Shown here: one piece after another, positions 6,000 to 38,835 of the stretch
Layout: each line of letters starts with the position of its first letter
Numbering within the stretch: position 1 is the stretch's first letter
Source of the DNA: a virus
Length of the DNA stretch: 44,483 nucleotides
Virus record (IMG/VR): IMGVR_UViG_3300005529_000058
Location: 1-44,483 of that record
Direction: 5' to 3' (one strand)
Notes under the pieces: generated by a model
Told to the model about the DNA's origin: nothing
The model's database searches: none
The model's input: the letters and a program-made list of their open reading frames with translations, nothing else
Position numbers and translations under genes: made by a program

Positions 6000-6117
6000 C
6001 AGGCTTCGAGTTCCCCGATAGGATTCAATTCCTGGGGCTCGAGCGGGCCGGCTCAAGGTGCTGGGGAGCAATTGGGTCGGCGCGCTAGGTTCCCGAGAGC
6101 AAGGAAAAAACTTTTCT

Positions 6118-7743
6118 ATGAATACAACGCCCGAAGTGTCTCGATACGCGGAAGCATTGCCGATTGCGTGGATTCGCGAGTCGGAATCGAACCCGCGCAA
6201 GACGTACGACCAGAAGAGCCTGCAGGAGCTGGCGGAGTCGATCAAGGCGAATCCGCTGGGTGTGGTCGAGCCGCTGGTGGTGCAGGAGCTCGGACCGGAG
6301 AGCTACTGCCTGATCGCGGGATCGCGGCGACTGCGCGCGGCGAAGATGGCGGGGCTGGAGACGATTCCGGCGCGGATCGCTGTGCTGAGCGAGAAGCAGA
6401 TTCTGGAGATCCAGCTGATCGAGAACCTGCAGCGCGAGGACGTCAAGCCCGTGGAAGAAGCCGAGGGGTATGCGCGGCTGATGGAGCTGGATCCGGACTA
6501 TACGGCCGAGAAGCTCGCGGAGCGCGTGGGCAAGGATCGCAGCTACGTCTACAAGCGGCTTACGCTGATCCGGCTGCCGGCGCCGGTGAAGGACGCGCTG
6601 GCGGATTCGCGGATCACGATCGGGCATGCACTGGCGATCGCGCGGCTGGGTTCCGGCATCGATCAGTTGAGAGCCTTCGGCGCGTGTTTTAGCGAGCAGC
6701 GTTGGGATGGGAAAACCAAGCTCTGGATCCATGTCACGGACGGCATTGCCGATGTCTCCGTCGAGCATGTCGAGCGATTCATCCGCGAAGAGATCCTGCT
6801 GGATCTGAAATCGGCGCCATGGAAAAAAGACGACGCCTCGCTGCTGCCTCGCGCCGGTGCGTGTACGGAGTGTCCTAAGCGGACGGGCTCAAACGCGGCA
6901 TTGTTTGATGACCTTCAGAAGGGTGATTTCTGTACCGACTCGGAATGCTTCCGCGCCAAGCGGGCCGCTCTCATTACGCGCATCGTGGAGGCGGGTCGTG
7001 CGGAAGGGAAAGTCGTTGTCGAAGTAACGGTGGGCTACGGTTTGGCCGAAAAGGGCTCGATTGGGCGCGACGATTTCCGCGAGATTACGAAAAAGGACCG
7101 GTGCGAGCACGTCGAGCCGGCCGTGGTCGTGAAGGGCGAGGGCCGGGTCGGACAGAGACTCGAGATCTGCCGAACGAAAACGTGTAAGAAGCACTGGCGT
7201 CAGTCGGGCCCCATGTCCAGTGGCGGGTCGCGGTCCGCGGTGGCGAAGCCTTCGGAAGCGGAACTGCTCAAGCGCAAGCGGGAGCTGCTGAATCAGCGGA
7301 TCGAAGTGGAGACGCGCCGGGAAGCGATCCGGACGATTGCCGATGCGCGGTCCGAGAAGACGCTGCTGATGGTGATCTTCATCGGCGAGCGGCTGATCGA
7401 GCGTTTGCATCACGACGACCAGAAGGAGCTGTGCGCGGCCTTCGGGATCGAGCCGAAGAAGAAGCAGTACGGGACCGACTATAAGGCTCCGCTGAAGGGC
7501 TGGCTGAAGGGCAAGAAGCCGGATGCCGTGCTGCCGTTCTTTGTCGCCGTGGCATCGTATGCCTCGTTCGGGGATTCGAGCCAGCAGATGAATGCCGCGG
7601 CGGAACTGATGGGCGTCGACCTGGCGGATCTGAAGAAGAAGATCGCGGCGCCGCTGCTGGCGAAGTTCGAGGCGGCGAAGCAGAAGAAAGCGAAATCGTC
7701 TCCGCCGGAGACGAAGAAGGCCGGAAAGAAGGCGGGGAAGTGA
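6118..7743 (+). CDS. ParB/Spo0J-family protein, no ParA partner
   Basis: A 541-residue protein, start at ATG 6118 after AAGGAAAAAA. The N-terminal ParB domain holds NPRKTYD (box I, about residue 22), GSRRLRAA (in place of the usual GERR, about residue 70) and ENLQREDVKPVEEAEG (about 100), the CTP-binding motifs of the family. A KorB-like HTH follows (AEKLAERVGKDRSYVYKRL, about 130). The long C-terminal part has a Cys cluster (CTECPKR, then FCTDSEC and CRTKTC), a charged helical region and a Lys-rich end. No ParA is present, so it may be a regulator, a clamp loaded on DNA or a replication factor. A candidate binding site is the repeat array at 17646-17869. Confidence 0.85.
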   Translation: MNTTPEVSRYAEALPIAWIRESESNPRKTYDQKSLQELAESIKANPLGVVEPLVVQELGPESYCLIAGSRRLRAAKMAGLETIPARIAVLSEKQILEIQLIENLQREDVKPVEEAEGYARLMELDPDYTAEKLAERVGKDRSYVYKRLTLIRLPAPVKDALADSRITIGHALAIARLGSGIDQLRAFGACFSEQRWDGKTKLWIHVTDGIADVSVEHVERFIREEILLDLKSAPWKKDDASLLPRAGACTECPKRTGSNAALFDDLQKGDFCTDSECFRAKRAALITRIVEAGRAEGKVVVEVTVGYGLAEKGSIGRDDFREITKKDRCEHVEPAVVVKGEGRVGQRLEICRTKTCKKHWRQSGPMSSGGSRSAVAKPSEAELLKRKRELLNQRIEVETRREAIRTIADARSEKTLLMVIFIGERLIERLHHDDQKELCAAFGIEPKKKQYGTDYKAPLKGWLKGKKPDAVLPFFVAVASYASFGDSSQQMNAAAELMGVDLADLKKKIAAPLLAKFEAAKQKKAKSSPPETKKAGKKAGK

Positions 7744-9744: not shown

Positions 9745-10830
9745 GTGGGGGCGAAGAGCAAGATCGAATGGACGGATGCGACCTGGAACCCGGTGCGCGG
9801 CTGCTCGGCCGTATCACCTGGTTGCAAAAACTGTTTTGCGGCACGCGACGCAGCTAGGTTCGCTGGCGCCGACGATAAACAGGGCACGCGGGGACCGTTT
9901 CACGGATTCGTGCGGATTTCCAGTAGTCAGCCGCAATGGACTGGCAAGGTCGAGTTGATGGAGCATAAGCTCGGCGAGCCGCTCGCATGGCGTAAACCGC
10001 AGAAGATTTTCGTGAATTCGATGAGTGATCTGTTCCACCAGGCGCTCCCGGACGAAGCAATCGACCAAATCTTCGCGGTGATGGCGCTGTGTCCGCGGCA
10101 CTCGTTTCAGGTCCTAACGAAACGGCCGCGCCGGATGATGGAGTATCTTGCCGATCCGGAGACGTCTGAGCGTGTCGACGCGTTTGCATGGGAAATGATC
10201 GAAGAGCGCGTGGATCCGCTGAACAGGCGATCTGATGACATCCGCGCGACGGCGCGGAGTCTACAGGACGGTCCGCTTCCAAATGTTTGGCTCGGCGTCT
10301 CCGTTGAGGATCAAGAGATGGCAGACGAGCGGATCCCGCTGCTGCTGCAGACACCCGCGGCGATTCACTTCGTAAGTTACGGGCCTGCGCTCGGGCCTGT
10401 GGACTTCAGCCGAACTCCGAATGACGAATTTGCTCATGGGTTCATTAACCCGCTGCGGGGATTCCAATCGGGGGACGATGGCACGCGCCGAAGGCTTGAT
10501 TGGATTGTCGCCGAGGGCGAGAGCGGTCCAGGTGCGCGACCTGCGCATCCGCAGTGGTTCCGGGATGTTCGCGACCAGTGCGTCGAGGCCGGCGTTTCGT
10601 TCTTCTTCAAACAGTGGGGCGAGTGGACTCCTGGCGAGAACGTCGACAGGCGATTCGGGACGGTCGAAACCGCCAAGTGGTTTGACGGTCGGTGGAGATT
10701 CAGCTCGGAGAATCTTGCTCGCACGGATGGCCATCGTGACGATCAGCCGGATCTGTATCGGGTCGGGAAGAGGGCTGCGGGCGCTTTCCTCGATGGCCGC
10801 GAGTGGCGCGAATTTCCGGAGGTCGCATGA
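9745..10830 (+). CDS. DUF5131 (phage Gp37/Gp68 family) protein, radical-SAM-like Cys motif
   Basis: A 361-residue protein starting at GTG 9745. The N-terminus KIEWTDATWNPVRGCSAVSP followed by GCKNCFA is the signature of the phage Gp37/Gp68 family (DUF5131). Its three Cys (C-x5-C-x2-C) look like a divergent iron-sulfur site related to radical SAM enzymes. Other family landmarks are IFVNSMSDLFH, FQVLTKRPRRM, NVWLGVSVED, the WIVAEGESGPGARP block and FFFKQWGEW. Members usually have Tyr where this one has Phe in NCFA. No reaction is established to my knowledge. It sits between small early genes and two excisionase-like genes. Confidence 0.85.
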   Translation: MGAKSKIEWTDATWNPVRGCSAVSPGCKNCFAARDAARFAGADDKQGTRGPFHGFVRISSSQPQWTGKVELMEHKLGEPLAWRKPQKIFVNSMSDLFHQALPDEAIDQIFAVMALCPRHSFQVLTKRPRRMMEYLADPETSERVDAFAWEMIEERVDPLNRRSDDIRATARSLQDGPLPNVWLGVSVEDQEMADERIPLLLQTPAAIHFVSYGPALGPVDFSRTPNDEFAHGFINPLRGFQSGDDGTRRRLDWIVAEGESGPGARPAHPQWFRDVRDQCVEAGVSFFFKQWGEWTPGENVDRRFGTVETAKWFDGRWRFSSENLARTDGHRDDQPDLYRVGKRAAGAFLDGREWREFPEVA

Positions 10831-11445: not shown

Positions 11446-11654
11446 ACGAAGACAGCGAATGTGTTGTAGCCTGGTGCCGCTGTTGCGACCACATCGTATT
11501 TGCGGCGGTCGACACGCCGGATCACGCCAATGAGAATGCGAGTGAGATCGCAAAGTGCGTCCGCGCGGGGCTGCGGGTGGGGTCGCTCAAGTCGAGCCAG
11601 GTTCGCGCTGCGGTTTGGGGTTGTGACCAGAAGTCGAAGAAGGCGAAGAGATGA
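11442..11654 (+). CDS. Small Cys-rich protein upstream of the integrase
   Basis: A 70-residue protein starting at GTG 11442, with CVVAWCRCCDH near the N-terminus and further Cys at about 39 and 61. The C-x4-C-x-CC pattern could bind a metal. The C-terminus is Lys-rich. Its stop overlaps the integrase start (ATGA). Family unknown. Confidence 0.5.
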   Translation: MNEDSECVVAWCRCCDHIVFAAVDTPDHANENASEIAKCVRAGLRVGSLKSSQVRAAVWGCDQKSKKAKR

Positions 11655-12988
11655 GCACGGACGTCGGCATGATAGACTCGCGGAATCGTCCTACGTTCGA
11701 TCTGAGGACGATTGGACGTCACTTGCCGAGACCTCGATCGCAGCGCGGTTGGCTGAGCGACACGATGCCGAAGCGCGGGAAGCTGCCGCGCGGGCGCTAT
11801 TTTGCGCGCTGGCGGGTTTATCTCCGCGGACCCGATGGGGTCGAGCGCATCCGGAAAGTCGAGAAGGTCATCGATCGCGATGTGGCCGAGCAGAAGGGAT
11901 TCGTGCTGGGCTATCCGGGGCCGCTCACGAAGACGGATGCGCGCGAGGTTCTCGAGCGGCTGATTCGCGAAACGAACGCGTCGCCAGCGACGGCGTTCCA
12001 GGGGCGAATGACGATGGGTGAGCTGGCTCGCGAATACATCGACCTGAACAAACCGCACTGGGGTGTGAATACGGTCCGCGTGAACGAATCGCTGATCGAG
12101 AATAATTTCATCGGGAAGCTCGGGCCGCGGCCGGTGCGGGACCTGGCGCCGGCGGAGCTGCAGCGGTTCATCAATGAATTCGTCGAGGCGCGGTACAGCC
12201 AGGCGCATCTGTCGAAGCTCGTCGGGTTCCTGCGGGCGATTCTGGATGTGGCGATGGACCGCCGGCTGATCGATCGGAATCCCGCGCGAAAGCTGCGGGC
12301 TAAGTCGAGAAAGAAGGCCAGCGACCTGGCACATACGTCGGAGGAGTGCGGCGCGCTGTTCGCCGCGGTGTCGGGCCGGGATCATGTCGCGATCCGGATC
12401 GCGGTCCAGCTCGGGCTGCGTCCGGAGGAGCTGTTCGTGCTGCGGCGGAATGACGTCCGCGGCGGCGAGCTGGTGATCGACGAGGCGCTGGTCGACGGGG
12501 ACACGAAGGAACCGAAGACGCTGGCGTCGGTCAGGTCACAGTATCTGCCGGCGGATCTGCAGACGGAGCTCGCGCATTATCTCGAGACGCTGGAGGATGA
12601 GGGGCCGACGGCGTGGCTCTTTCCTGCGACACGCAAGGGCGTCCCCGTGCGGCCGAATAATTTTCTGAAGCGGGTCCTGAAGCCGGCGGCGATTCGGGCG
12701 AAGATCGCGGTCGCGAAGGACGCGAAGGGGAACGAGACGACGGCCGTAAATTTTCAGTCGCTGCGAAGGACGTCGGCGACGCTGTTCGGGGCCAGGGCGA
12801 AGGATCCGAAGTCGACGCAGGCGCACATGGGGCATGCGGATCCGCAGGTCACGCTGAGGCATTATCAGCAGGCGATCCCGGCGGAGGTCAAGGCGGCCGC
12901 GCTGGCGCTCGAGAGGGATCTGCTGGAGGCGCAGAAGAGGTCGGTGGAGAAGATGCGGGGAGAGGTCGCGAATGTCAGACCGGTCTAA
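11651..12988 (+). CDS. int: Tyrosine site-specific recombinase (integrase)
   Basis: A 445-residue phage integrase. Residues about 45-95 look like an arm-type DNA-binding domain, about 120-220 is the core-binding domain (MTMGELAREYIDL, and LSKLVGFLRAILDVAMDRRL), and the rest is catalytic. Visible active-site residues are Arg257 (GLRPEELFVL), Arg372 (FQSLRRT), His395 (AHMGHAD) and Tyr405 (LRHYQQAI). The His that normally stands three residues before the second Arg is Gln369; I recall this FQ-x-LRRT form from acidobacterial integrases. The start overlaps the previous stop (ATGA); the unusual N-terminal extension may be non-essential. A tRNA-Thr-derived att core lies about 350 bases downstream. 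Confidence 0.92.
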   Translation: MSTDVGMIDSRNRPTFDLRTIGRHLPRPRSQRGWLSDTMPKRGKLPRGRYFARWRVYLRGPDGVERIRKVEKVIDRDVAEQKGFVLGYPGPLTKTDAREVLERLIRETNASPATAFQGRMTMGELAREYIDLNKPHWGVNTVRVNESLIENNFIGKLGPRPVRDLAPAELQRFINEFVEARYSQAHLSKLVGFLRAILDVAMDRRLIDRNPARKLRAKSRKKASDLAHTSEECGALFAAVSGRDHVAIRIAVQLGLRPEELFVLRRNDVRGGELVIDEALVDGDTKEPKTLASVRSQYLPADLQTELAHYLETLEDEGPTAWLFPATRKGVPVRPNNFLKRVLKPAAIRAKIAVAKDAKGNETTAVNFQSLRRTSATLFGARAKDPKSTQAHMGHADPQVTLRHYQQAIPAEVKAAALALERDLLEAQKRSVEKMRGEVANVRPV

Positions 12989-19737: not shown

Positions 19738-20065
19738 ACAGTTGCGACTGCCGACGCTGCGCAGCGCCAGGCTGCCATTTCGCGTTCGCCGCCGGACCGT
19801 TCGCCGCGCGGTGTGGCGTGAGCTGGCGGCGCATACGGATGAGGCTCTGAAGCACGGTTTCGAAATCCGGCCGCTGGTGGAAGATTCGATGTTGCTGGCG
19901 GAGCTGCGGGTGCGGTACCGAGCGGCGGCGCGAGTCATGCGGCGGCAGACGGGCGCGCCGCGCGCGGCATTTGCGGGGACGCTCGAAGGGCGGCGGATTC
20001 ATCAGCTGATGACTTTGCTGAGCGAGCGGATTTCGGCGCGCGAGGACAAGATCCTGTGTGGCTGA
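19730..20065 (+). CDS. Small helical protein, possible partial paralogue of the small terminase
   Basis: A 111-residue helical, Arg-rich protein from GTG 19730. Its second half (AFAGTLEGRRIHQLMTLLSE, then RISAREDKILCG) resembles the terminase small subunit from ALAKTHEGRR onward: both have EGRR, a helix ending in an R-I-x-x pair, and the closing residues LCG. The junction to the next gene (TGTGGCTGA) is identical to the one before it. A tandem partial duplication of terS is the simplest account; it could instead be an unrelated packaging accessory. Confidence 0.5.
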   Translation: MAEQLRLPTLRSARLPFRVRRRTVRRAVWRELAAHTDEALKHGFEIRPLVEDSMLLAELRVRYRAAARVMRRQTGAPRAAFAGTLEGRRIHQLMTLLSERISAREDKILCG

Positions 20066-22757
20066 CTATCGTCCCGCGACGTGCGCCTATTGCAACACGG
20101 ACACGTGGTGCGAGAAGCGAGCGAACGGGAAACCACAGTGCCGCGCCTGTAAGATCGAGCGCTTTTATGAGTATGTGCTCTATGCGCCGTTCAGCTACAA
20201 GCTTCAGCGATGGGGCCGCGACACGCTTCGACGGCTCTATGGGACAGTCCGTCCGGAAAACGGCCTCCGGCAGTATCGCCGTGGCTACATCAGCACCGCA
20301 AAGCAGAACGGAAAACAGTTGAGCGTGGACACTCCTATCCCAACCCCCAACGGATGGCGAACGATGGGTGATCTGAAAGTGGGAGATTTCGTTTTCGGGC
20401 CTGACGGCTCGCCCACCCCAGTGATTGCCAAGAGCCGACCGGATGCTACCGAACGCGCGTTTCAGATTTCATTCAGGGATGGATCGTCAATCATCGCCGG
20501 TGCGCGTCACGAATGGTACGCGGAAAAATATTCGGGGCAGATCCGCAGAATTTTTACTACTCAGGAATTCTTCGAACAAGATAGTCCGCGCCGCTCAAAT
20601 TTTCGTATCCCTGTGGCTGCGCCCCTAGATCTTCCACCGGCGGAGCTGCCTGTTCACCCGTATCTTTATGGATTCTGGCTCGGCAATGGCTGCGCAACGA
20701 AACCGGAAGTGACGGTGTATCGCGAGGATGCCGATGCGTTCGTGGCGAATATGCAGCGTTCAGGCGACCGGATCGCCGCGATGATGGCCCAGGCGGGCGA
20801 AAGCAACGTCTATCGCCTGCCGGCACTTCGTAGTGTTCTGGTAGAGCACTTCTCTCAGAAGCGTATTCGTCCTGCATACCTTCGAGCGTCGGCCGCTCAG
20901 CGTTGGGATCTCCTGGCTGGGTTGATCGACTCCGATGGGTGTATTTCGACGAACAGGGGACAGTCGATTTATGCGACATCGGTCCCCGGATTGGCTGATG
21001 ATGTCGTCGAGCTGCTGCGCACCTTGGGTGTAAAGGCGACATGCAATCGTGTTGACTCGGATCGTTACGGCAAGCCGAATGCGCCTCACTATCGCGTCCA
21101 GTTCACCGCCGTGGAAGACATGCCGTGCTCCTGGCTGGATCGAAAGCTGAAGCGCCGTTGGCGCAAGATCGACGGATCGCGCGGGGAGTTTCATCATTTT
21201 ACGATTTCGGAAGTCGCTCCGCGGCCGATGCAATGCATTCAGGTTGCACACCCTGATCACATCTATCTGGCGGGTCCCGGCTTCGTGCCAACGCATAACA
21301 GCTTTATCATTGGCGGCCTTCCGATTTACCACCTTTTGATGGAAGACGAGTTCCAGCCCGAGGCTTACGGCGTGGCGAGCGCGCGCGACCAGGCGGGCAT
21401 CGTGTTTAAGGCCGCGGCGACGCTGGTGGAGGCGAATCCGCTGCTGCGATCGAAGCTCAAGGTACTCGAAAGCACGAAGCGAATCGTGAGGCGGGATGGC
21501 GGCGGCATCTATACCGTGCTTTCGGCGGACGGCGACGTGCAGGACGGCAAGCGTCCCAGCCTGCTGCTGTTTGACGAGCTTCACCGGTTCACGCGGAAGA
21601 AGGCGGAGACGGTCCGGACGGTGCTGTTGAAGGGGATGATTTCTCGCGCTCCCGTGGTCGACGGCGTGGCGACGGGCGAACCTTTGATGCTGCAGACGAC
21701 TACTTCGGGCGACGAGCATGAATCGCGGCTGTGGTTCAGCGAATACGAATACGCTCAGCATGTCATCGACGGCAGCATCGAGGACGAAAGCTACTTCGCG
21801 GTGATTTACCAGGCGGACCCGCGGCGTATCGAGAGCGATCCCGAGTATTGGAAGAGCCGAGAGGCTCGCGTGGCCGCGAATCCCTCGCATGAGGACCGCG
21901 GCGGCTTTCTGGCGGACAAGGAAATCGAGAAGGACATGCTTGAGGCGGTCGCCAGGCCGGAGAAGTATGGCGACTACGTCCGGCTGAACCTGAACGTTCC
22001 GGTGGTTGCAACGGGAACGCCGGCGATCGAGATGGCGCTGTGGAGCTCGGGCGGCGGCGATGTCGATCTGCGGAAATGGCCGGTCTATGACGTCGATCTG
22101 CTGATCTCGAAATGGAATCTGGCCGAGCGCGCATGCGTGGTGGGAATCGATTTTGCGTGGACCACCGACTTTGCGTGCGTCTCGGTGCTGTTCCTGCCCA
22201 CTGAACAGGATCCGACCTGGCGAGTTCTGGTGTTCTACTGGCTGCCGGCGGACGCGATCGCGGGCCTCGAGCGACGGACGCGGGCTCCGCTGACGGACTG
22301 GGTACGCCGCGGTTTTCTCCAGACCTCGCCTGGCGCCGAGATCCGGATGCAGGACCTATTCGAAAAAGTGGAATGGGCCGCGGAGATGTTCAGCGTGCGC
22401 GAAGTGACGTTCGATCGCTACGGCGGCGTCGACGCGGCAGCCACGCTCGCACTGGTTCCGAAAGGTTTCGTGTGCGTGAAGATTCCGCAGACGCTGAGCG
22501 GGCTTTCGCCGGCGACGAAGGCGTTTCTGGGCGCCTACAAGAACCGCCAACTGGTGCACGGCAACCATCCGATTCTGAACTGGAATGTTTCCTGCATGAC
22601 GCTGGCGACCGACGGCGGCGATCAATGCAAGCCCGAAAAGCCGGCGCGGGATGAGTCGGCGAAACGGATCGACGGAGTGGCGGCGACGGTGACGGCATGG
22701 GCGCGCGCGATGTTCCTGTCTCCGGCGGAGACAGAGAGCGTGATCGAGGTCTGGTGA
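20058..22757 (+). CDS. terL: Terminase large subunit containing an intein
   Basis: The 899-codon gene encodes a 571-residue terminase plus a 328-residue intein (Gln87-Asn414). The terminase N-terminus carries a CxxC...CxxC zinc-ribbon-like segment (Cys9, 12, 28, 31). The Walker A reads STAKQNGK then, after the intein, SF: insertion is directly after the catalytic Lys86. Walker B is SLLLFDELHRF (Asp506, Glu507). The C-terminal nuclease begins VGIDFAWTTDF (Asp698), with FDRYGG later. It powers DNA packaging and cuts genome ends. Start at ATG/GTG-type GTG 20058 overlaps the preceding gene. Without splicing the Walker A loop would be split, so ATPase activity should depend on intein removal. Confidence 0.93.
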   Translation: MADYRPATCAYCNTDTWCEKRANGKPQCRACKIERFYEYVLYAPFSYKLQRWGRDTLRRLYGTVRPENGLRQYRRGYISTAKQNGKQLSVDTPIPTPNGWRTMGDLKVGDFVFGPDGSPTPVIAKSRPDATERAFQISFRDGSSIIAGARHEWYAEKYSGQIRRIFTTQEFFEQDSPRRSNFRIPVAAPLDLPPAELPVHPYLYGFWLGNGCATKPEVTVYREDADAFVANMQRSGDRIAAMMAQAGESNVYRLPALRSVLVEHFSQKRIRPAYLRASAAQRWDLLAGLIDSDGCISTNRGQSIYATSVPGLADDVVELLRTLGVKATCNRVDSDRYGKPNAPHYRVQFTAVEDMPCSWLDRKLKRRWRKIDGSRGEFHHFTISEVAPRPMQCIQVAHPDHIYLAGPGFVPTHNSFIIGGLPIYHLLMEDEFQPEAYGVASARDQAGIVFKAAATLVEANPLLRSKLKVLESTKRIVRRDGGGIYTVLSADGDVQDGKRPSLLLFDELHRFTRKKAETVRTVLLKGMISRAPVVDGVATGEPLMLQTTTSGDEHESRLWFSEYEYAQHVIDGSIEDESYFAVIYQADPRRIESDPEYWKSREARVAANPSHEDRGGFLADKEIEKDMLEAVARPEKYGDYVRLNLNVPVVATGTPAIEMALWSSGGGDVDLRKWPVYDVDLLISKWNLAERACVVGIDFAWTTDFACVSVLFLPTEQDPTWRVLVFYWLPADAIAGLERRTRAPLTDWVRRGFLQTSPGAEIRMQDLFEKVEWAAEMFSVREVTFDRYGGVDAAATLALVPKGFVCVKIPQTLSGLSPATKAFLGAYKNRQLVHGNHPILNWNVSCMTLATDGGDQCKPEKPARDESAKRIDGVAATVTAWARAMFLSPAETESVIEVW
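20316..21299 (+). mobile_element. LAGLIDADG intein in the terminase Walker A motif (class 3-like)
   Basis: The insert begins QLSVDTPIPTPNGWRTMGDL (block A with Gln, not Cys or Ser, as residue 1) and ends VPTHN before Ser415. Block B is AGARHEWY (Trp153) and block F is MQCIQVAHPDHIYLAG (Cys393); with Thr412 in PTHN this gives the Trp-Cys-Thr set that defines class 3 inteins, where the block F Cys is the first nucleophile. A homing endonuclease lies between: LYGFWLGNGCAT (first LAGLIDADG, with Asn210 where an acidic residue is usual) and LLAGLIDSDGCI (second, Asp293 intact). Boundaries are set by splice-site residues and by restoration of GKS. Confidence 0.88.
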
Positions 22758-27784: not shown

Positions 27785-28531
27785 ATGGGTTATTGCCGCG
27801 CGATCGAATTGCCGAGTGCCGAGCCTGTTTCGTTGGCGGACGCGCGCAGCTTTTTACGGCTGTCGTCCGCGTATACGGCCGAGGACGACACGATCGAGGC
27901 GCTGATTGTCGCGGCGCGCGAGCAGGGCGAGGTTCTGACGGGCCGGGCACTGGCGAAGCGGAAGTTTACCCAGGTCCTGGATTCGCATCCGTATTACACA
28001 GACAGCGTGCAGAGCCAGCTGGCCTATCCGCCGAACTACTACAGTTTGCCGCGGTATTCGACGACGCTGTGGAACTACTCCCAGATGATCAAGCTGGGCT
28101 ATTCGCCGGTGATCAGCGTCGAGGGGATGATCTACATTGCGCCCGACGGCAGCTCGCAGACATGGCTCCAGGACACGCAGTTCATTCTTGACCGGATCTC
28201 CGAACCGGCACGCATCTTTCCGCTGCCGGGGCAGAACTGGCCGGCGGACCTGAATGTCGCGAATTCGCTGCAGATCAATTTCACGGCCGGCTACGATCCG
28301 GATCCGACCGCGGTCGATACGCATGTCATCGGCTCGCCACCGCTGAGCCCGCCCGGACAACAGGTGACGTCGACGATCGTGAGCGGGATCCCGCAGAAGC
28401 TTCGCCTGGCGATCCTGAACCTGGTCGCGTTCTGGTTTCAGAACCGCGGCGCCGCGGGGACCGTGCCTCCGTACATCGAGAACATTTTTCTTTCGCACGC
28501 GATTTATGACTTCGCTCCGACGCGCGGATAA
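27785..28531 (+). CDS. Head-tail connector (gp6-like)
   Basis: A 248-residue protein starting at ATG 27785. The N-terminal PVSLADARSFLRLSSAYTAE followed by DDTIEALIVAAREQGEVLTGRAL-type helices is the signature of gp6-like connectors that extend the portal ring. The C-terminal helix (LRLAILNLVAFWFQNRG) completes the usual layout. The middle is an inserted beta-rich segment. Confidence 0.85.
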   Translation: MGYCRAIELPSAEPVSLADARSFLRLSSAYTAEDDTIEALIVAAREQGEVLTGRALAKRKFTQVLDSHPYYTDSVQSQLAYPPNYYSLPRYSTTLWNYSQMIKLGYSPVISVEGMIYIAPDGSSQTWLQDTQFILDRISEPARIFPLPGQNWPADLNVANSLQINFTAGYDPDPTAVDTHVIGSPPLSPPGQQVTSTIVSGIPQKLRLAILNLVAFWFQNRGAAGTVPPYIENIFLSHAIYDFAPTRG

Positions 28532-28533
28532 CC

Positions 28534-28911
28534 ATGACATCGTCCTACAAAATCGTCAACGGACGGCCCACGATCGAGATCGGGGCTCTGCGTCACGAAG
28601 TGTCGATCCAGAAGAACGGCCCAGCCAGCCCGCCAGTGTTCGACGCGGGCGGCCCGGTCCTTGGATGGAATACCTTCGCGACGGCGCTCGCGGCGATCGA
28701 GGCGGTCCGCGGAACGGACGTCATCAAGTCTGGCCAGACTACGACTCAGTTGTTTCTGACGGTCACGATGTGGTGGCAGCCGGGAATTCTTCCCGATATG
28801 CGCGTCGCTAGCGATAACGGCAGCCTGTACGTGATTCAGAGCGTGGAGAACGTCCTCGAGATGGATGTGGTGCTGGTGCTGAACTGCCTGGGGCTTTCGA
28901 AGAACACATGA
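28534..28911 (+). CDS. Head closure / head-tail adaptor protein
   Basis: A 125-residue beta-rich protein: IEIGALRHEVSIQKNG, then WNTFATALAAIEAVRGTDV and LFLTVTMWW, SLYVIQSVENV. GALRH(R/E)V-x-IQ at the start is typical of phage head-closure proteins. It precedes the glycan cassette, whose first gene overlaps its stop by four bases. Confidence 0.85.
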   Translation: MTSSYKIVNGRPTIEIGALRHEVSIQKNGPASPPVFDAGGPVLGWNTFATALAAIEAVRGTDVIKSGQTTTQLFLTVTMWWQPGILPDMRVASDNGSLYVIQSVENVLEMDVVLVLNCLGLSKNT

Positions 28912-29558
28912 ATTCGCTGGTTACCTGCATTTGCCCGACGACGGCCTCGCGCCGGAAGTTTCTGCCGCGGGCGATCGACTGTTTCCTCAAGCAGACGTAT
29001 ACGCCGCGGGAGCTGCTGATTGTCACTGAGCCAGGCGAGGCGATCGAGGTGCCGGATCATCCGCTGATTCGAGTGGTGCGCACTCCCGGGCTCCTGCGTT
29101 TGGGCGCCAAGCGCAATTTCGCATGCGAGCAGGCCTACGGCGAAATCATCGCGCATTTCGATGACGACGATGTTTCGGCGGCGGAACGGCTGGCGGATCA
29201 GGTGAGCTGGCTTGTTTTGTCGGGGCTCGGTGTGACCGGCTACAGCCAGATGAAGTTCACCGATGGGAACCGCTGGTGGAAATATACGGGCGATCCGAAG
29301 TTTCCGCTGGGGACCTCGCTCTGTTACTGGAAGAGCTGGTGGGAGCAGTGCCGGTTTCCGGATCAGCAGGAATCGTCGGACACGGTCTTTACCTATGCGG
29401 CGCAGGGCGCCGGGCAGGTCTCCGTGCATCCCTGCGGCAACATGATGTTCGCGACCGTGCATCCTGCGAGCGTCCAATATAAGCGGCGCATTTCGCACCT
29501 GGGCGATAAGAGCAACTGGCCCGAGCTGCCGGCGACCGAGGCGGTGGTATGCGCCTGA
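28908..29558 (+). CDS. Glycosyltransferase family 2-like (GT-A)
   Basis: A 216-residue protein. The start VTCICPTTASRRKFLPRAID, then FLKQTYTPRELLIV, is the nucleotide-sugar fold of GT2 enzymes, and IIAHFDDDDVSAAERL holds the metal-binding acidic run (Asp85-Asp88). No membrane helix is present, so it is probably cytosolic. It starts the cassette of six glycan genes between head and tail genes. Substrate and acceptor are unknown; a virion protein is my best guess. Confidence 0.85.
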   Translation: MNSLVTCICPTTASRRKFLPRAIDCFLKQTYTPRELLIVTEPGEAIEVPDHPLIRVVRTPGLLRLGAKRNFACEQAYGEIIAHFDDDDVSAAERLADQVSWLVLSGLGVTGYSQMKFTDGNRWWKYTGDPKFPLGTSLCYWKSWWEQCRFPDQQESSDTVFTYAAQGAGQVSVHPCGNMMFATVHPASVQYKRRISHLGDKSNWPELPATEAVVCA

Positions 29559-30034
29559 ACCTCGGATGCTCGGACGATCACCGGGATGGATACGTGAACG
29601 TCGACCAGGCGCCGCCGGCGGATCAAATTGTGAATCTGCGGAAGCGCTGGCCTTGGGCAGACTCGAGTGTCGACGAAATCCTGGCGCATGACGTCTTCGA
29701 GCACCTGAAGTCGAAGGTGCGGACGATGAACGAATGCTGGCGGGTGCTGAAGCCCGGCGGCGTGCTCGACCTGGCTGTGCCGTGCGTGATGCTTGCCGAT
29801 GGCCGGGTGAATCCCGGCGCGTTCAGCGATCCGACGCACAAATCATTCTGGACCATGGACGATCGCTATTACTTCTGCGAGGAGTGGAACAACCCTCAGG
29901 GCGAGCGCGGCCGTCTGGGTCCTGCTTATAGGATCAACGCATTGTTCCGCCCGCGGAAATGGGAGCTGTTCGAGTACGGGGCCGGTGCGGAGCGGCGGTC
30001 TAAGGTGCGGGCGATTCTGGAGGCCGTGAAGTGA
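29549..30034 (+). CDS. SAM-dependent methyltransferase (class I)
   Basis: A 161-residue protein. LNLGCSDDHRDGYVNVD (motif I), WADSSVDEILAHDVFEHL and ECWRVLKPGGVLDLAVP are the hallmarks of small class I methyltransferases that often serve glycan pathways. It overlaps the glycosyltransferase end by 10 bases and the next gene by four. Likely function is methylation of a sugar; the acceptor is inferred from context. Confidence 0.82.
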   Translation: MRLNLGCSDDHRDGYVNVDQAPPADQIVNLRKRWPWADSSVDEILAHDVFEHLKSKVRTMNECWRVLKPGGVLDLAVPCVMLADGRVNPGAFSDPTHKSFWTMDDRYYFCEEWNNPQGERGRLGPAYRINALFRPRKWELFEYGAGAERRSKVRAILEAVK

Positions 30035-31308
30035 TTTTCGCAACGAACGAGCGAGAAACGATCGCGCTGCCGCTTTCATTTGCACCGCCGGCGCTGCTGA
30101 CGGGAGCGCGCTGGAGCCAGATCGAGCATTTTTACCCGACGGACAAGATCCGGCAGATCGAGAAGGCCTCGATCCGGGAGTTCATGGAGAAGTACCGGCA
30201 CTTCCTGCGCGGCCGCGTGGCGGATTTCGGCGCGGGGCTGCAGCCGTATCGCGATCTGGTCGGCGGCGAGTACTTCCCGATGCAGGAAGGCGATCTGTTT
30301 CCGCCGGCTCTGTTGGACGCGGTGATGTGCAACCAAGTGGCGCAATATCTCGGCGATCCCGCGGCGACGTTTCAGGAGATCGCGTCGAGGCTCCGCCGCG
30401 GCGGCCGTCTGGTGATGACGTACCCGACCAATTGGGACGAAGTCGAGGGGAACGATTACTGGCGGTTCACGAAAGCCGGCATGGAGCGACTGCTGAAGGC
30501 TGTGGGGCTAAGTGTGATCGCGCATGAGCTGCGCGCGGAAGTCCGCGTCAATAATTTCCGTTTCCCGCTGGGCTATGGAGTGGTGGCGCAGAAGCCGTAT
30601 ACGCCGGGTCCGGATGCGAGCGCGAAGATCCTGGCGGAGATGGTCCGCCGGCGCGTGCCGTTCTTTTTCATCCGCTACGGCGACGGCGCGATCGAGTGCA
30701 TACGGGGTCTGGGCCGAGGCTCGACTCGCGATGGCGAAGAATATTCGCCGGCACTGGGCAAGCTGCTGCTCGACGCCTGGAATAGCGTGATCGGATCGCC
30801 GGGGGCCGTTGTGGGGGATTGGCGATCGGCATCGTTCGATGCGCGTTCGGAATACAGCCGCTATACGGAGGAGTATGAGCAGCTGCTGGGCGATGCGCAT
30901 CCACTGCTGCTGCATTTCGAATCGCTGCTGCTGATGCGCGAATCGGAAGAGCTTGTGGACTTTTACCGGGCGGTGAAAGAGGATCCGCGCAAGAAGTTGT
31001 TTATGGGGCCGGCGGGGAATGCGGGCGCGGCGGCGATGCTCGGCGCAGAGTTCCTCGAGGTGCCGATGACGAATCTGCTGCTCCACACCGGCCGGCTCAG
31101 CGACGAGCTGATCACGCGGGATTTCGACGTGCTGCTCTACGGCGCCGGCATGGCGGGGACGATCCCCGCGGCGCGGTGCTTCCAGAAATTCCCGCAGCGG
31201 ACGTTTATCAACCTCGGGAGCGCGATGGATCCGCTGTTTCGAGGTACGACGAGGCGGCAACAGTTGACGACGGCGCGAGCGCGCGCCTTATTTGCGGAGC
31301 TCATGTGA
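30031..31308 (+). CDS. Methyltransferase to GT-D-type glycosyltransferase fusion
   Basis: A 425-residue fusion. Residues 1-190 are a class I methyltransferase-like domain (RVADFGAGLQPYRDLV, LRRGGRLVMTYPTNWDEV, YWRFTKAGMERLLKAVGL). After a linker near 190-205, the second half begins VPFFFIRYGDGAIECI (Arg215-Tyr-Gly-Asp-Gly219), the signature of GT-D fold (DUF1792-type) glycosyltransferases, and continues through FMGPAGNAGAAAMLG to RTFINLGSAMDPLF. Motif I of the first half lacks the usual GxGxG spacing, so that half may be degenerate. The pairing of sugar transfer and methylation in one chain suits stepwise capping of a glycan. Confidence 0.75.
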   Translation: MIFATNERETIALPLSFAPPALLTGARWSQIEHFYPTDKIRQIEKASIREFMEKYRHFLRGRVADFGAGLQPYRDLVGGEYFPMQEGDLFPPALLDAVMCNQVAQYLGDPAATFQEIASRLRRGGRLVMTYPTNWDEVEGNDYWRFTKAGMERLLKAVGLSVIAHELRAEVRVNNFRFPLGYGVVAQKPYTPGPDASAKILAEMVRRRVPFFFIRYGDGAIECIRGLGRGSTRDGEEYSPALGKLLLDAWNSVIGSPGAVVGDWRSASFDARSEYSRYTEEYEQLLGDAHPLLLHFESLLLMRESEELVDFYRAVKEDPRKKLFMGPAGNAGAAAMLGAEFLEVPMTNLLLHTGRLSDELITRDFDVLLYGAGMAGTIPAARCFQKFPQRTFINLGSAMDPLFRGTTRRQQLTTARARALFAELM

Positions 31309-31859
31309 TCGATCCGAAAAAAGTGAGTGCGGTGCTGGTGACGAAGGGGGGCCGAGACGTTGCGTCGATCCGCGAGCGTCTGAGCGTCTTCGGCCAGGTG
31401 ATCGTCTGGAACAATGCGGCGGGCATCGACGAAAAGGTCTTCGGGCGATATCTCGGTGTTCTGCAGGCAACCTGCGATCACGTTTACGTGCAGGATGACG
31501 ATTGCCTGATCGACGTCGAGCGGTTGTGCGCGGAATATCGGCCAGACGAAGTGCTGTGCAATGTCTTGCCGAGTCACGCGCCCTTTTACGGCGCCAGGCG
31601 GATGAGTCTGGTGGGCTGGGGTTCGATCTTCCCGAAGACGGCAGTCAATTTCGATCCCTATCTGTGGAAGTTTGCGTCCGATGAGCTGTTTAAGCGAGAG
31701 TGCGACCGGGTGTTTACGCGGCTGAACTGGCTGCGGATCCGCGTGGTGGACATCGGCGTCGAGCATCTTCCGTGGGCACATGGCGACGACCGCATGGGGC
31801 GCGAGGCGCGGCACGGGAATGACCTCGAGGTGATCACGCAAAGGCTGGCGGTGCTGTGA
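31305..31859 (+). CDS. Glycosyltransferase-like protein
   Basis: A 184-residue protein starting at GTG 31305 (overlapping the previous stop). The opening VSAVLVTKGGRDVASIRERL and the acidic VYVQDDDCLIDVERL (Asp64-Asp66) fit the nucleotide-sugar domain of a small GT-A enzyme; WGSIFPKTAVNFDPY and VEHLPWAHGDDRM follow. It is shorter than most GT2 enzymes. Role in the cassette: probably a further sugar transfer. Confidence 0.7.
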   Translation: MIDPKKVSAVLVTKGGRDVASIRERLSVFGQVIVWNNAAGIDEKVFGRYLGVLQATCDHVYVQDDDCLIDVERLCAEYRPDEVLCNVLPSHAPFYGARRMSLVGWGSIFPKTAVNFDPYLWKFASDELFKRECDRVFTRLNWLRIRVVDIGVEHLPWAHGDDRMGREARHGNDLEVITQRLAVL

Positions 31860-32404
31860 AGCTATTTGTTTCTCCGCACAATGACGACGCCGTGCTGTTC
31901 GGCGCCTTTACGCTGCAGCGGGAGCGGCCGCTGGTGCTGACTGTGTTCGATAGTCATGTCCAGGTGGCGCGCGGCAACGCGCACTGCGATGCAGCGACCC
32001 GGCGGAATGAGGACATCGCGGCGATCCGCGGGGTGCTCGGCTGCGCGATTCAGTTCGGGGGCGTGCCGGACGATAACCCGGATCCGGGTAAGGTTCGCGC
32101 GGCGCTCGAGAAGTGGGCGCTTGCGGCCGAGGTTTGGCTGCCGGCGGTCGAAGTCGACGGACATGCCCAGCACAATCTGGTGGGCGAGATCGGCCTCGAG
32201 GTGTTCTCGAGGGCGATCGTTCACCGATACCTGACGTATACGACGGCGGGGAAGTCGAGCCACGGCCGGGTGGTTCCCTTCACCGGCGCGATGCTGCGGA
32301 ATAAGTTGCAGGCGATGATCTGCTACCAGACGCAGATCGAGACGGATTCGCTGGGCTGCTGGCCGCATTTCGCCCGCAATCAGTACGAATATCTGGCCGA
32401 TTGA
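31856..32404 (+). CDS. PIG-L / LmbE-family deacetylase
   Basis: A 182-residue protein whose start MKLFVSPHNDDAVLFGAF contains the H-x-D-D zinc motif (His8, Asp10, Asp11) of PIG-L deacetylases, and HAQHN (His103, His106) supplies the distant His ligand. RNEDIAAIRGVLGC is the usual following helix. Family members remove acetyl from N-acetyl sugars. In this cassette it would modify an amino sugar on the glycan. Start overlaps the upstream stop. Confidence 0.82.
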   Translation: MKLFVSPHNDDAVLFGAFTLQRERPLVLTVFDSHVQVARGNAHCDAATRRNEDIAAIRGVLGCAIQFGGVPDDNPDPGKVRAALEKWALAAEVWLPAVEVDGHAQHNLVGEIGLEVFSRAIVHRYLTYTTAGKSSHGRVVPFTGAMLRNKLQAMICYQTQIETDSLGCWPHFARNQYEYLAD

Positions 32405-32416
32405 GCCGCGTTCGTA

Positions 32417-33160
32417 ATGGATAAGATCGACATTCTTTTTCTCGGTCACGAGCGCGAAGAGTTCACGCGCGCAGCTCATGCCGCATTGGTGGCGAATACG
32501 AACTGGTCGCGCGTGCATCGCGTGGTGATTTACGACGATGGCGCCGCGGCGCACCTTCCGGCGTTGTTGAAATTTCCGGTGTATTCGATCGGCCGGAGCC
32601 AGCGGCTTGGCGGTCCGGTGGCGATCATGAACGATTTTCTCGGTCGATCTGGGGCGGCTGTGTTCGCAAAGATCGACAACGATGTGATCGTCCCGCCTAG
32701 CTGGCTCGATGCGGCGCTGGATGTGATGGCATCGCGGACGGAGCTGGGGCTGCTGGGCCTGGAGCCTCCGATGAGCAGGACTCCGGCGCCGTGGGCGCCC
32801 GACCGCCGGCATCGCATCCCTGAATGGGAAGACGTCGCCGCAAATGAAGCGCGCGGATATGCGCCGTGCGATGCGATCGGCGGCGTTGGAGTAATGCGGC
32901 GGAGCGTGTTCGATGGCGGCATGCAGCCGCGCGGCATCTATGGCGGTTTCACGGACTGGCAGCTGCGGCATCCGGAGATCGGGAAGGGCTGGATCTGCCC
33001 GCCGCTGAATCTGTTTCTGCTGGACCGGTTGCCGATGGAGCCGTGGGCTTCGCTTTCCCGTGAGTACATCGCGAAGGGCTGGCAGAGGGCCTGGACGAAT
33101 TACGGTCCGGAGGCCGCGCCGCTGTGGAGCTGGTGGGCGACGGATGCTGTACACGACTGA
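32417..33160 (+). CDS. Glycosyltransferase, GT-A type
   Basis: A 247-residue protein. IDILFLGHEREEFTRAAHAA, then RVVIYDDGAAA, and VFAKIDNDVIVPPSWLDAAL (D-x-D, Asp87 and Asp89) are GT-A features; GYAPCDAIGGVGVMRRSVF resembles the acceptor-side motif of GT2 enzymes. It ends the cassette. The 12-base gap before it contrasts with the four-base overlaps among most of the others. Confidence 0.8.
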   Translation: MDKIDILFLGHEREEFTRAAHAALVANTNWSRVHRVVIYDDGAAAHLPALLKFPVYSIGRSQRLGGPVAIMNDFLGRSGAAVFAKIDNDVIVPPSWLDAALDVMASRTELGLLGLEPPMSRTPAPWAPDRRHRIPEWEDVAANEARGYAPCDAIGGVGVMRRSVFDGGMQPRGIYGGFTDWQLRHPEIGKGWICPPLNLFLLDRLPMEPWASLSREYIAKGWQRAWTNYGPEAAPLWSWWATDAVHD

Positions 33161-33290
33161 GCTTGGCCTCTTGCGGAAGCTGGCGATCGCCGGCGGACCA
33201 GGTATTCCCGGCGCGGTCGCGATGGTGATGCCTGCGCTATGGTTTTGGCCGCGATGCAGCGGGCTGATCGTGACGGTTTTCAAAAACTAA
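33144..33290 (+). CDS. Very small hydrophobic protein, doubtful
   Basis: A possible 48-residue protein (ATG 33144) with a hydrophobic middle (LAIAGGPGIPGAVAMVMPAL). It overlaps the end of the last glycosyltransferase and fills the gap before the tail terminator gene. No ribosome-binding site. It might be a cryptic membrane peptide or no gene at all. Confidence 0.3.
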   Translation: MLYTTELGLLRKLAIAGGPGIPGAVAMVMPALWFWPRCSGLIVTVFKN

Positions 33291-33294
33291 CAAG

Positions 33295-33690
33295 ATGCTC
33301 GAAGACGGGATCGCGAAGCTGGTGCAGAGCAATCCGGCAGTCGCCGCCATTGCGACCATGGGCGGCTTTGTCGGGCAGCTCCCGGAAAATTTCACGCTGC
33401 CGTCCTGGACGCAGAGATCGGCCGGCGACTATTCGGAATACGGGCTGCAGGGCGAGCGCGGCCTAAACCGGAGGCGCCTGCAGATTGACTGCTACGGCAG
33501 TCCGGCGGAGGCCGTCAGCCTGGCGGAAGCGATCGACGCGGTGCTGAGCGGGTACAAGGGCACGCTTCCGGACGACGATTCGACGCTCGTGTACGGGTGT
33601 TTTCAATCCGACGTGATGGATTTTTTCGATTCCGGGGCCCGCACGCTCCGGAGAATGCTCGAGTACAGGATCTGGTTCTTCCGAGCCTGA
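33295..33690 (+). CDS. Tail terminator / tail completion protein
   Basis: A 131-residue protein (LVQSNPAVAAIATMGGFVGQ, LPSWTQRSAGDYSEYG, RRRLQIDCYGSPAEAVSLAE, MLEYRIWFFRA). The pattern resembles the small tail-completion proteins (DUF3168-type) that cap the tail tube next to the connector. It comes first in the tail block, before the tube gene. Confidence 0.7.
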   Translation: MLEDGIAKLVQSNPAVAAIATMGGFVGQLPENFTLPSWTQRSAGDYSEYGLQGERGLNRRRLQIDCYGSPAEAVSLAEAIDAVLSGYKGTLPDDDSTLVYGCFQSDVMDFFDSGARTLRRMLEYRIWFFRA

Positions 33691-38421: not shown

Positions 38422-38835
38422 ATGTCGCGAAGCGTCAACAAGGTTATTTTGATCGGCCATTTAGGCAGGGATGCGGAGACTTCCTGGACGCCGTCGCAGG
38501 TGTCGGTGACGAAGTTTTCGGTGGCCACGAACCGGCGGTGGAAGGATCAAGGCTCGGGCGAGTGGAAAGAGCAGACCGACTGGACCAGCGTCGTGCTCTG
38601 GCGCGGGGAGAAGGTCGCGGAGTACCTCAAGAAAGGGCAGCAGGTCTATGTGGAGGGCCGGCTGCAGACGCGGAGCTATGAGAAGGACGGCATGAAGCAC
38701 TGGGTCACGGAGGTGATCGCGGACTCTGTGATTCTGCTGGGCGGCTCCGGCGATCGCGGCGGCGCGTCCCGCGCGGGCGCAGGGGATCCGCCGCCGCATC
38801 GCGACGGGGTAGGGGATGACGACGTTCCGTTCTAG
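38422..38835 (+). CDS. ssb: Single-stranded DNA-binding protein
   Basis: A 137-residue SSB: MSRSVNKVILIGHLGRDAET, VTKFSVATNRRWKD, EQTDWTSVVLWRGEKVAEYL, KKGQQVYVEGRLQTRSYEKD, a Gly/Pro/Arg-rich linker and the acidic tip DDDVPF that recruits partner proteins. The fold is complete. It sits between the tape measure and the distal tail gene, far from the replication block at 13.5-18 kb, so it would be expressed late unless it has its own promoter, which I do not see. Confidence 0.95.
   Translation: MSRSVNKVILIGHLGRDAETSWTPSQVSVTKFSVATNRRWKDQGSGEWKEQTDWTSVVLWRGEKVAEYLKKGQQVYVEGRLQTRSYEKDGMKHWVTEVIADSVILLGGSGDRGGASRAGAGDPPPHRDGVGDDDVPF

What the first reader, a model, noticed from the sequence alone, without database searches (positions are those of the whole stretch)
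28908..33160. Six-gene glycan-modification cassette placed between the head and tail genes
Three glycosyltransferase-like genes, a class I methyltransferase, a methyltransferase to GT-D fusion and a PIG-L deacetylase are joined mostly by four-base overlaps and lie exactly between head closure and tail terminator. None of the genes has a membrane anchor, so action on cytosolic targets such as assembling virion proteins is likely. Glycosylation of capsid and tail proteins is known from actinobacteriophages; this would be an acidobacterial version with methylation and deacetylation. An alternative is modification of host surface polysaccharide to block superinfection.
Basis: partly seen in the sequence, partly recalled or inferred. 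Interest (0 to 1): 0.8.

Follow-up and report, generated by a model that had tools for sequence, protein, structure and literature searches.

The report
Phage sugar-coat cassette among head genes
A temperate soil phage, probably of Acidobacteriota, carries six co-linear genes for building and trimming a sugar chain inside its head-and-tail gene block; the same gene set recurs in dozens of uncultured phages, mostly beside head genes, so these phages most likely decorate their own particles with a custom sugar chain, although no sugar has yet been seen on a particle.

Summary
Six same-strand genes (28908-33160) lie between head completion (PF05521) and tail terminator (PF11367), joined by 4-10 base overlaps. 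They encode a GT2 glycosyltransferase, a methyltransferase, a methyltransferase/GT-D fusion, a GT-A-fold glycosyltransferase, a PIG-L deacetylase and a second GT2-like enzyme. None has a membrane segment. The GT-D part rests on an AlphaFold model whose best PDB matches are DUF1792 (4pfx/4phr), but the DxE glutamate is alanine.

The set is a real module. Thirty-nine IMG/VR contigs (32 groups at 90% GT4 identity) carry at least four of the seven families, co-linear and on one strand. Where the window's head-connector genes are recognisable it sits at one of three junctions: MCP|adaptor, adaptor|head-completion, head-completion|tail-terminator. Related acidobacterial prophages have no, one, or several GT genes at that last junction. 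The window's head genes resemble one phage (L016), its cassette others (L004/L024/L083), so cassettes appear to be swapped.

No close match exists in 50,697 phage records. Twenty related records lack thymidylate synthase, priming glycosyl-phosphotransferase and GtrA. Most likely it is a late-expressed cytosolic pathway putting a methylated, de-N-acetylated oligosaccharide on virion proteins (confidence 0.6). The acceptor is unknown; host-surface modification is not excluded.

The parts
28534..28911 (+). head completion / head closure protein (upstream flank)
   Evidence: PF05521 3.7e-10, phrog_25 head closure Hc1; its stop overlaps the GT1 start by 4 bases
28908..29558 (+). GT1, soluble GT2-family glycosyltransferase, DDDD motif; the only cassette gene in the smallest relatives
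   Evidence: PF00535 4.3e-11; profile to heparosan synthase B 1.5e-15; alone at this junction in L128 and L130
29549..30034 (+). MT2, class I SAM methyltransferase
   Evidence: PF08241 4.8e-9; up to 81% identity to relatives in other contigs
30031..31308 (+). MT3 + GT-D fusion: class I methyltransferase (about residues 1-188) and GT-D-fold domain (about 190-425)
   Evidence: PF08241 2e-4; AF2 pLDDT 92 and Foldseek best 4pfx/4phr E 5e-7; the halves are separate genes in L003 and L004; DxE motif altered
31305..31859 (+). GT4, GT-A-fold glycosyltransferase, QDDD motif, no Pfam family
   Evidence: AF2 pLDDT 97; Foldseek to GT-A enzymes, best E 2.3e-4; 53-sequence alignment keeps D64 D65
31856..32404 (+). 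PIG-L/LmbE-type N-deacetylase
   Evidence: PF02585 2.1e-5, under cut-off; invariant PHxDD and H106; diacetylchitobiose deacetylase 1.4e-4
32417..33160 (+). GT6, GT2-like glycosyltransferase, KIDND motif, not found outside viruses here
   Evidence: profile to heparosan synthase B 4.8e-5; 39 viral loci; no relative in genome contigs
33295..33690 (+). tail terminator / tail completion gp17 (downstream flank)
   Evidence: PF11367 3.1e-7

Best explanation
The cassette is a cytosolic glycan-assembly module expressed with the late structural genes. GT1 probably starts the chain on a virion protein. The GT-D domain, GT4 and GT6 add further sugars, the PIG-L enzyme removes an N-acetyl group from an amino sugar, and the two methyltransferases cap or modify sugars, before or while particles assemble. 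The acceptor is most likely an abundant head or tail protein, or a fibre/decoration protein; fibre-like genes sit beside the cassette in several relatives. Different phages exchange the module, giving particles of different glycan 'serotype'. Shown here: gene content, order, site preference, spread and mosaicism. Predicted: the folds. Inferred: donor sugars, acceptor, order of action and biological role.
For: Seven families co-linear and on one strand in 39 contigs, 32 groups at 90% GT4 identity. Placed at three different junctions of the head-connector region; in larger phages the core has terminase, portal, protease and head proteins of other families in its flanks. GT1 overlaps the head-completion gene by 4 bases. 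Same junction in related prophages holds no GT, GT1 alone, or several GTs. Extra genes in relatives are sugar genes: DegT, WbqC, epimerase, YdjC, GT2s. Collagen-like and other fibre genes lie beside cassettes; L019 has collagen next to a Galactosyl_T gene. No membrane segments; no priming transferase or GtrA in 20 records. Mycobacteriophages glycosylate capsid and tail tube with their own GTs (PMC12363180).
Against: No glycan and no acceptor has been observed. MCP and tail tube of the window have no Ser/Thr-rich extension, and no fibre gene lies in the window's own cassette. The head-tail boundary is a recombination boundary in this phage, which explains part of the position without function. 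The GT-D DxE glutamate is lost, so that domain may be inactive or use another residue. Soluble GTs can also act on lipid-linked sugars.
Confidence: 0.6

Rival explanations
1. The enzymes modify host surface polysaccharide (O-antigen or exopolysaccharide precursors at the inner membrane) to block superinfection or keep progeny from sticking to debris, using the host's lipid carrier, priming transferase and flippase.
For: Many of the carriers are temperate (integrase in 12 of 20 records), and phage-encoded O-antigen conversion is common. Sugar-nucleotide genes and WbqC in related cassettes are typical of polysaccharide loci. One acidobacterial vOTU set lists a GtrB-like protein (PMC11924767).
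Against: No GtrA and no priming glycosyl-phosphotransferase in the window or 19 related records. The genes are inside the late structural operon with no promoter-like site found, not in a lysogenic-conversion position, and keep to head-gene junctions across divergent phages.
Confidence: 0.2
2. A set of accessory enzymes with some other target (small molecule, lipid or host metabolite) that rides at a recombination boundary between head and tail modules; the location carries no functional meaning.
For: In the window head genes match L016 while cassette and tail terminator/tube lean to L004/L024. L130 carries other accessory genes between adaptor and head completion. PIG-L relatives act on small glycoconjugates.
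Against: The module is also found inside the head block (MCP|adaptor and adaptor|head-completion) and keeps its order over much sequence divergence; several GTs plus methyltransferases and a deacetylase look like one glycan pathway.
Confidence: 0.13
3. DNA hypermodification: the GTs glycosylate modified bases of the phage genome.
For: Virus-encoded GTs that hypermodify DNA with diverse glycans are known (reference cited in PMC12619734).
Against: No thymidylate synthase/hydroxymethylase-type partner (PF00303) in the window or 19 related records, with control genomes ringing; the genes sit in the structural block, not the replication block. Several records are fragments.
Confidence: 0.03

Closest known systems
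Virion glycosylation of mycobacteriophages (Che8 gp110, Corndog gp38, Myrna)
   Same: Phage-encoded soluble glycosyltransferases thought here to act on the phage's own particle; capsid and tail tube are the known targets (PMC12363180; PMC12619734)
   Different: Here a multi-gene pathway with methyltransferases, a GT-D domain and a deacetylase, collinear and set among head genes; no close sequence match in phage records; no glycan shown
Cytosolic Fap1 adhesin glycosylation in Streptococcus parasanguinis (dGT1: DUF1792 GT-D plus GT-A CgT)
   Same: Sequential soluble GTs on a protein in the cytosol; GT-D fold matches 4pfx/4phr and the GT1 profile matches GalT1 5hea
   Different: No serine-rich repeat acceptor found in the window; GT-D fused to a methyltransferase instead of a GT-A domain; DxE altered
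PIG-L/LmbE N-deacetylases (diacetylchitobiose deacetylase, MshB/BshB type)
   Same: PHxDD and GHxxH residues kept; profile match to solved deacetylases
   Different: Phage-encoded, short, under the Pfam cut-off, substrate unknown
Gtr-type serotype conversion cassettes of temperate phages
   Same: Temperate phages carrying glycosyltransferase genes that could alter a surface
   Different: No GtrA flippase, no membrane protein in the cassette, late-operon location

Membership tests
Phage virion-protein glycosylation systems | glycan present on virion proteins, dependent on the phage GT | not testable with these tools
   needs purified virions; no isolate is known
Phage virion-protein glycosylation systems | phage-encoded soluble GTs linked to structural genes | tested here: met
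Phage virion-protein glycosylation systems (mycobacteriophage GT families) | sequence relationship to GTs of isolated phages | tested here: not met
   tblastn of four cassette proteins gave no match and GT1 three weak partial matches in 50,697 records, none in mycobacteriophages; structure-level comparison not done
GT-D glycosyltransferases (DUF1792) | GT-D fold | tested here: met
   4pfx/4phr the only PDB matches under E 0.001, probability 1.0, TM-score 0.57; PF22882 GT-D-like weak in 2 of 6 members
GT-D glycosyltransferases (DUF1792) | DxE metal-binding motif | tested here: not met
   RFGDGE of 4pfx aligns with RYGDGA; a Glu two positions later is conserved in the core group
PIG-L N-deacetylases | catalytic/metal residues PHxDD and second-motif His | tested here: met
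   H8, D10, D11, H106 invariant in 9 sequences
PIG-L N-deacetylases | Pfam PF02585 gathering score | tested here: inconclusive
   25.5 bits against a cut-off of 28.2
Gtr-type O-antigen conversion | GtrA flippase | tested here: not met
   PF04138 in 0 of 20 records
Lipid-linked polysaccharide or glycoprotein pathway | priming glycosyl-phosphotransferase | tested here: not met
   PF02397 in 0 of 20 records; a host enzyme could supply it
Phage DNA hypermodification | thymidylate synthase/hydroxymethylase-type partner | tested here: not met
   PF00303 in 0 of 20 records

The most novel reading that the evidence does not exclude
A widespread exchangeable virion 'serotype' locus of uncultured phages, many probably of Acidobacteriota: a self-contained seven-family pathway (three glycosyltransferases, a GT-D domain, two methyltransferases, one deacetylase) that builds a methylated, partly de-N-acetylated oligosaccharide on phage particles and is exchanged between phages at three defined head-gene junctions.
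Probability: 0.45. Interest if true: 0.8.

Novelty: new variant of a known kind. Interest (0 to 1): 0.62.

Why it matters
If true, virion glycosylation is not confined to phages of a few cultured hosts but is a common, modular trait of uncultured phages, with a pathway richer than a single transferase. Soil has no antibodies, so it would ask what a sugar coat is for there: adhesion, shielding, host recognition or stability. The gene set MT3, GT-D, GT4, PIG-L, GT6 is also a marker with which to find such phages.

Tried and rejected
DNA hypermodification: no TS homologue in 20 records. Lipid-linked or Gtr-type conversion: no priming transferase or GtrA. Serine/threonine-rich acceptor in the window: none striking. 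Composition shift marking recent import: none, GC 0.62-0.64 as around it. GT6 in bacterial genomes: none in genome contigs; in 396 Acidobacteriota-phylum genomes only generic partial GT2 matches inside large proteins. GT-D: nothing in the same genomes, but that search had no positive control genome; MT3 has chromosomal relatives in 19 of 396. Paper searches found no description of this cassette; the primary mycobacteriophage paper is not held, so its content is cited second hand. PMC8402811 concerns a host-derived lipid-linked glycan and is not a precedent. The long opposite-strand ORF 31862-33283 was set aside: no homology support, while the + strand ORFs have many homologues.

Full report
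OBSERVATION. The flanks are head completion PF05521 and tail completion gp17 PF11367. The record is a 44,483-base IMG/VR virus contig with an integrase at 11651-12988 and a lambda-type structural block. G+C is flat across the cassette. No 19-residue segment of the six proteins is hydrophobic enough for a membrane anchor.

WHAT THE PARTS ARE. GT1 is a GT2-family enzyme; its family profile matches heparosan synthase B (1.5e-15), chondroitin synthase and GalT1/5hea. MT2 and the N-terminal half of gene 3 are class I methyltransferases. The C-terminal half of gene 3 has no Pfam hit alone, but an AlphaFold model from 14 viral sequences (pLDDT 92) has the DUF1792 GT-D structures 4pfx/4phr as its only matches below E 0.001. 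RFGDGE of 4pfx reads RYGDGAIE here, so the fold is met and the motif is not. GT4 has no family, but its model (pLDDT 97) matches GT-A glycosyltransferases (best E 2e-4) and it keeps QDDD. The PIG-L protein keeps the metal residues and matches diacetylchitobiose deacetylase. GT6 keeps KIDND with one exception in 14 sequences, L009 KIDSD, and matches GT2 synthases.

A REAL MODULE. Scans with GT-D, GT6 and GT4 profiles found 12, 39 and 68 viral loci. In gene maps of 93 contigs, 39 carry at least four of the seven families, in 32 groups at 90% GT4 identity. All 479 confident family hits lie on the + strand of loci oriented by one cassette gene. Pair order is nearly fixed: GT1 before MT2 18/18, MT3 before GT4 35/35, GT4 before GT6 36/37. 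PIG-L is the gene that most often changes place, and GT1 lies after GT6 in three contigs. MT3 and GT-D are fused in the window and in L028, L030, L031 and L033, but separate in L024, L025, L026, L083, L004, L032 and L040.

WHERE IT SITS. The module lies at MCP|adaptor (e.g. L028, L030, L031, L033), adaptor|head-completion (e.g. L057, L015; L045 and L046 have GT1 before the adaptor) or head-completion|tail-terminator (window, L024, L025, L026, L083, L062). In larger phages with only the PIG-L/MT3/GT4/GT6 core, a pooled scan of flanking genes found terminase, portal, protease and major head proteins of other PHROG families; in L078 a terminase lies just upstream. For the other remote contigs the neighbourhood was not examined.

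NATURAL SERIES. An MCP-profile scan of genome contigs gave Acidobacteriota MAGs as the four best matches: Terriglobia 64%, Acidobacteriia 52%, Acidobacteriaceae 50%, Bryobacterales 48%. Host assignment rests on MAG binning. The window's head genes match L016 best (portal 64, MCP 69, adaptor 66, head completion 63%), while GT-D, MT3, GT4, PIG-L and GT6 match L004, L024 or L083, whose MCPs, where present, are only 36 and 32% identical; tail terminator and tail tube also lean that way. MT2 is closest to L028/L030. So glycan gene sets appear to be swapped on related head backgrounds, with one boundary near head completion/GT1.

EXTRA GENES IN RELATIVES. A pooled scan of 66 further ORFs from cassette regions gave GT2s (19 members), more methyltransferases, DegT aminotransferases (4), YdjC (2), WbqC and an NAD epimerase, which make or alter sugars. 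Fibre-like genes occur inside or beside cassettes: malectin in L032, CBM5/12 and weak collagen in L066, collagen next to a Galactosyl_T gene at MCP|adaptor in L019, tail-fibre profiles in L086, and proteins with signal-peptide-like starts in L024 and L083. They are candidate acceptors, but none lies in the window's own cassette.

MECHANISM. Shown: content, order, sites, spread, mosaicism. Predicted: folds and motifs. Inferred: late co-expression (overlap with head completion; no sigma-70-like promoter in the region, which is weak evidence in this phylum); GT1 as primer, because it stands alone in the smallest versions and first in most others; chain growth by GT-D, GT4 and GT6; de-N-acetylation by PIG-L; methyl capping by MT2 and MT3; a virion acceptor. 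No TS, priming transferase or GtrA is present in 20 related records, with control genomes ringing, though several records are fragments. Twelve of the 20 have an integrase.

COMPARISON AND NOVELTY. It works like phage-encoded virion glycosylation as reported for Che8, Corndog and Myrna (PMC12363180; PMC12619734) and, in enzymology, like cytosolic Fap1 glycosylation by dGT1 (PMC5063993). Membership is not claimed: the glycan is untested and no close match exists among 50,697 phage records (GT1 has three weak partial hits). GT6 and GT-D were not found in host-phylum genomes, while MT3 relatives were. A paper on acidobacterial viruses mentions scattered GT genes (PMC11924767) but the passages read do not describe this module. 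I rate it a new variant of a known kind.

CAVEATS. GT2-type profiles can cross-react between GT1, GT6 and generic GT2s in the more remote contigs. The series L129-L128-L127 compares relatives and is not a time course. A recombination hot spot explains part of the position.

Noticed in passing
window 20058-22757: Terminase large subunit is interrupted by an intein-like insert with a LAGLIDADG endonuclease (PF14528, PF05204); relatives L016 and L017 align on either side of the gap, residues 1-123 and 414-899.
   Followed up: partly
window 33144-33290: Possible 48-residue ORF with a hydrophobic stretch between GT6 and the tail terminator, overlapping the end of GT6; coding status unknown.
   Followed up: no
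window 38422-38835: A single-stranded-DNA-binding-protein-like gene (MSRSVNKVILIGHLGRDAE...) inside the tail gene cluster, after the tape measure gene.
   Followed up: no
window 27785-28531: The head-tail adaptor has a conserved Tyr/Ser/Asn-rich stretch (HPYYTDxxQSQLAYPPxYYSLPRYSTTLWNYSQMIKL) that GT-less relative L020 shares; unusual, not linked to the cassette.
   Followed up: partly
L019:5125-6932: Collagen-repeat protein (PF01391) next to a Galactosyl_T-type gene (PF01762) between MCP and adaptor, a different sugar gene at one of the same junctions.
   Followed up: partly
L024:10702-12488: Three consecutive small proteins with signal-peptide-like N-termini (...YAQ...AAQ...FGQ) inside a phage cassette between GT-D and GT4; similar starts in L083 and L032.
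   Followed up: partly
window 9745-10830: DUF5131 gene (PF07505, 1.6e-89) in the early region beside a ParB-like gene at 6058-7743.
   Followed up: no
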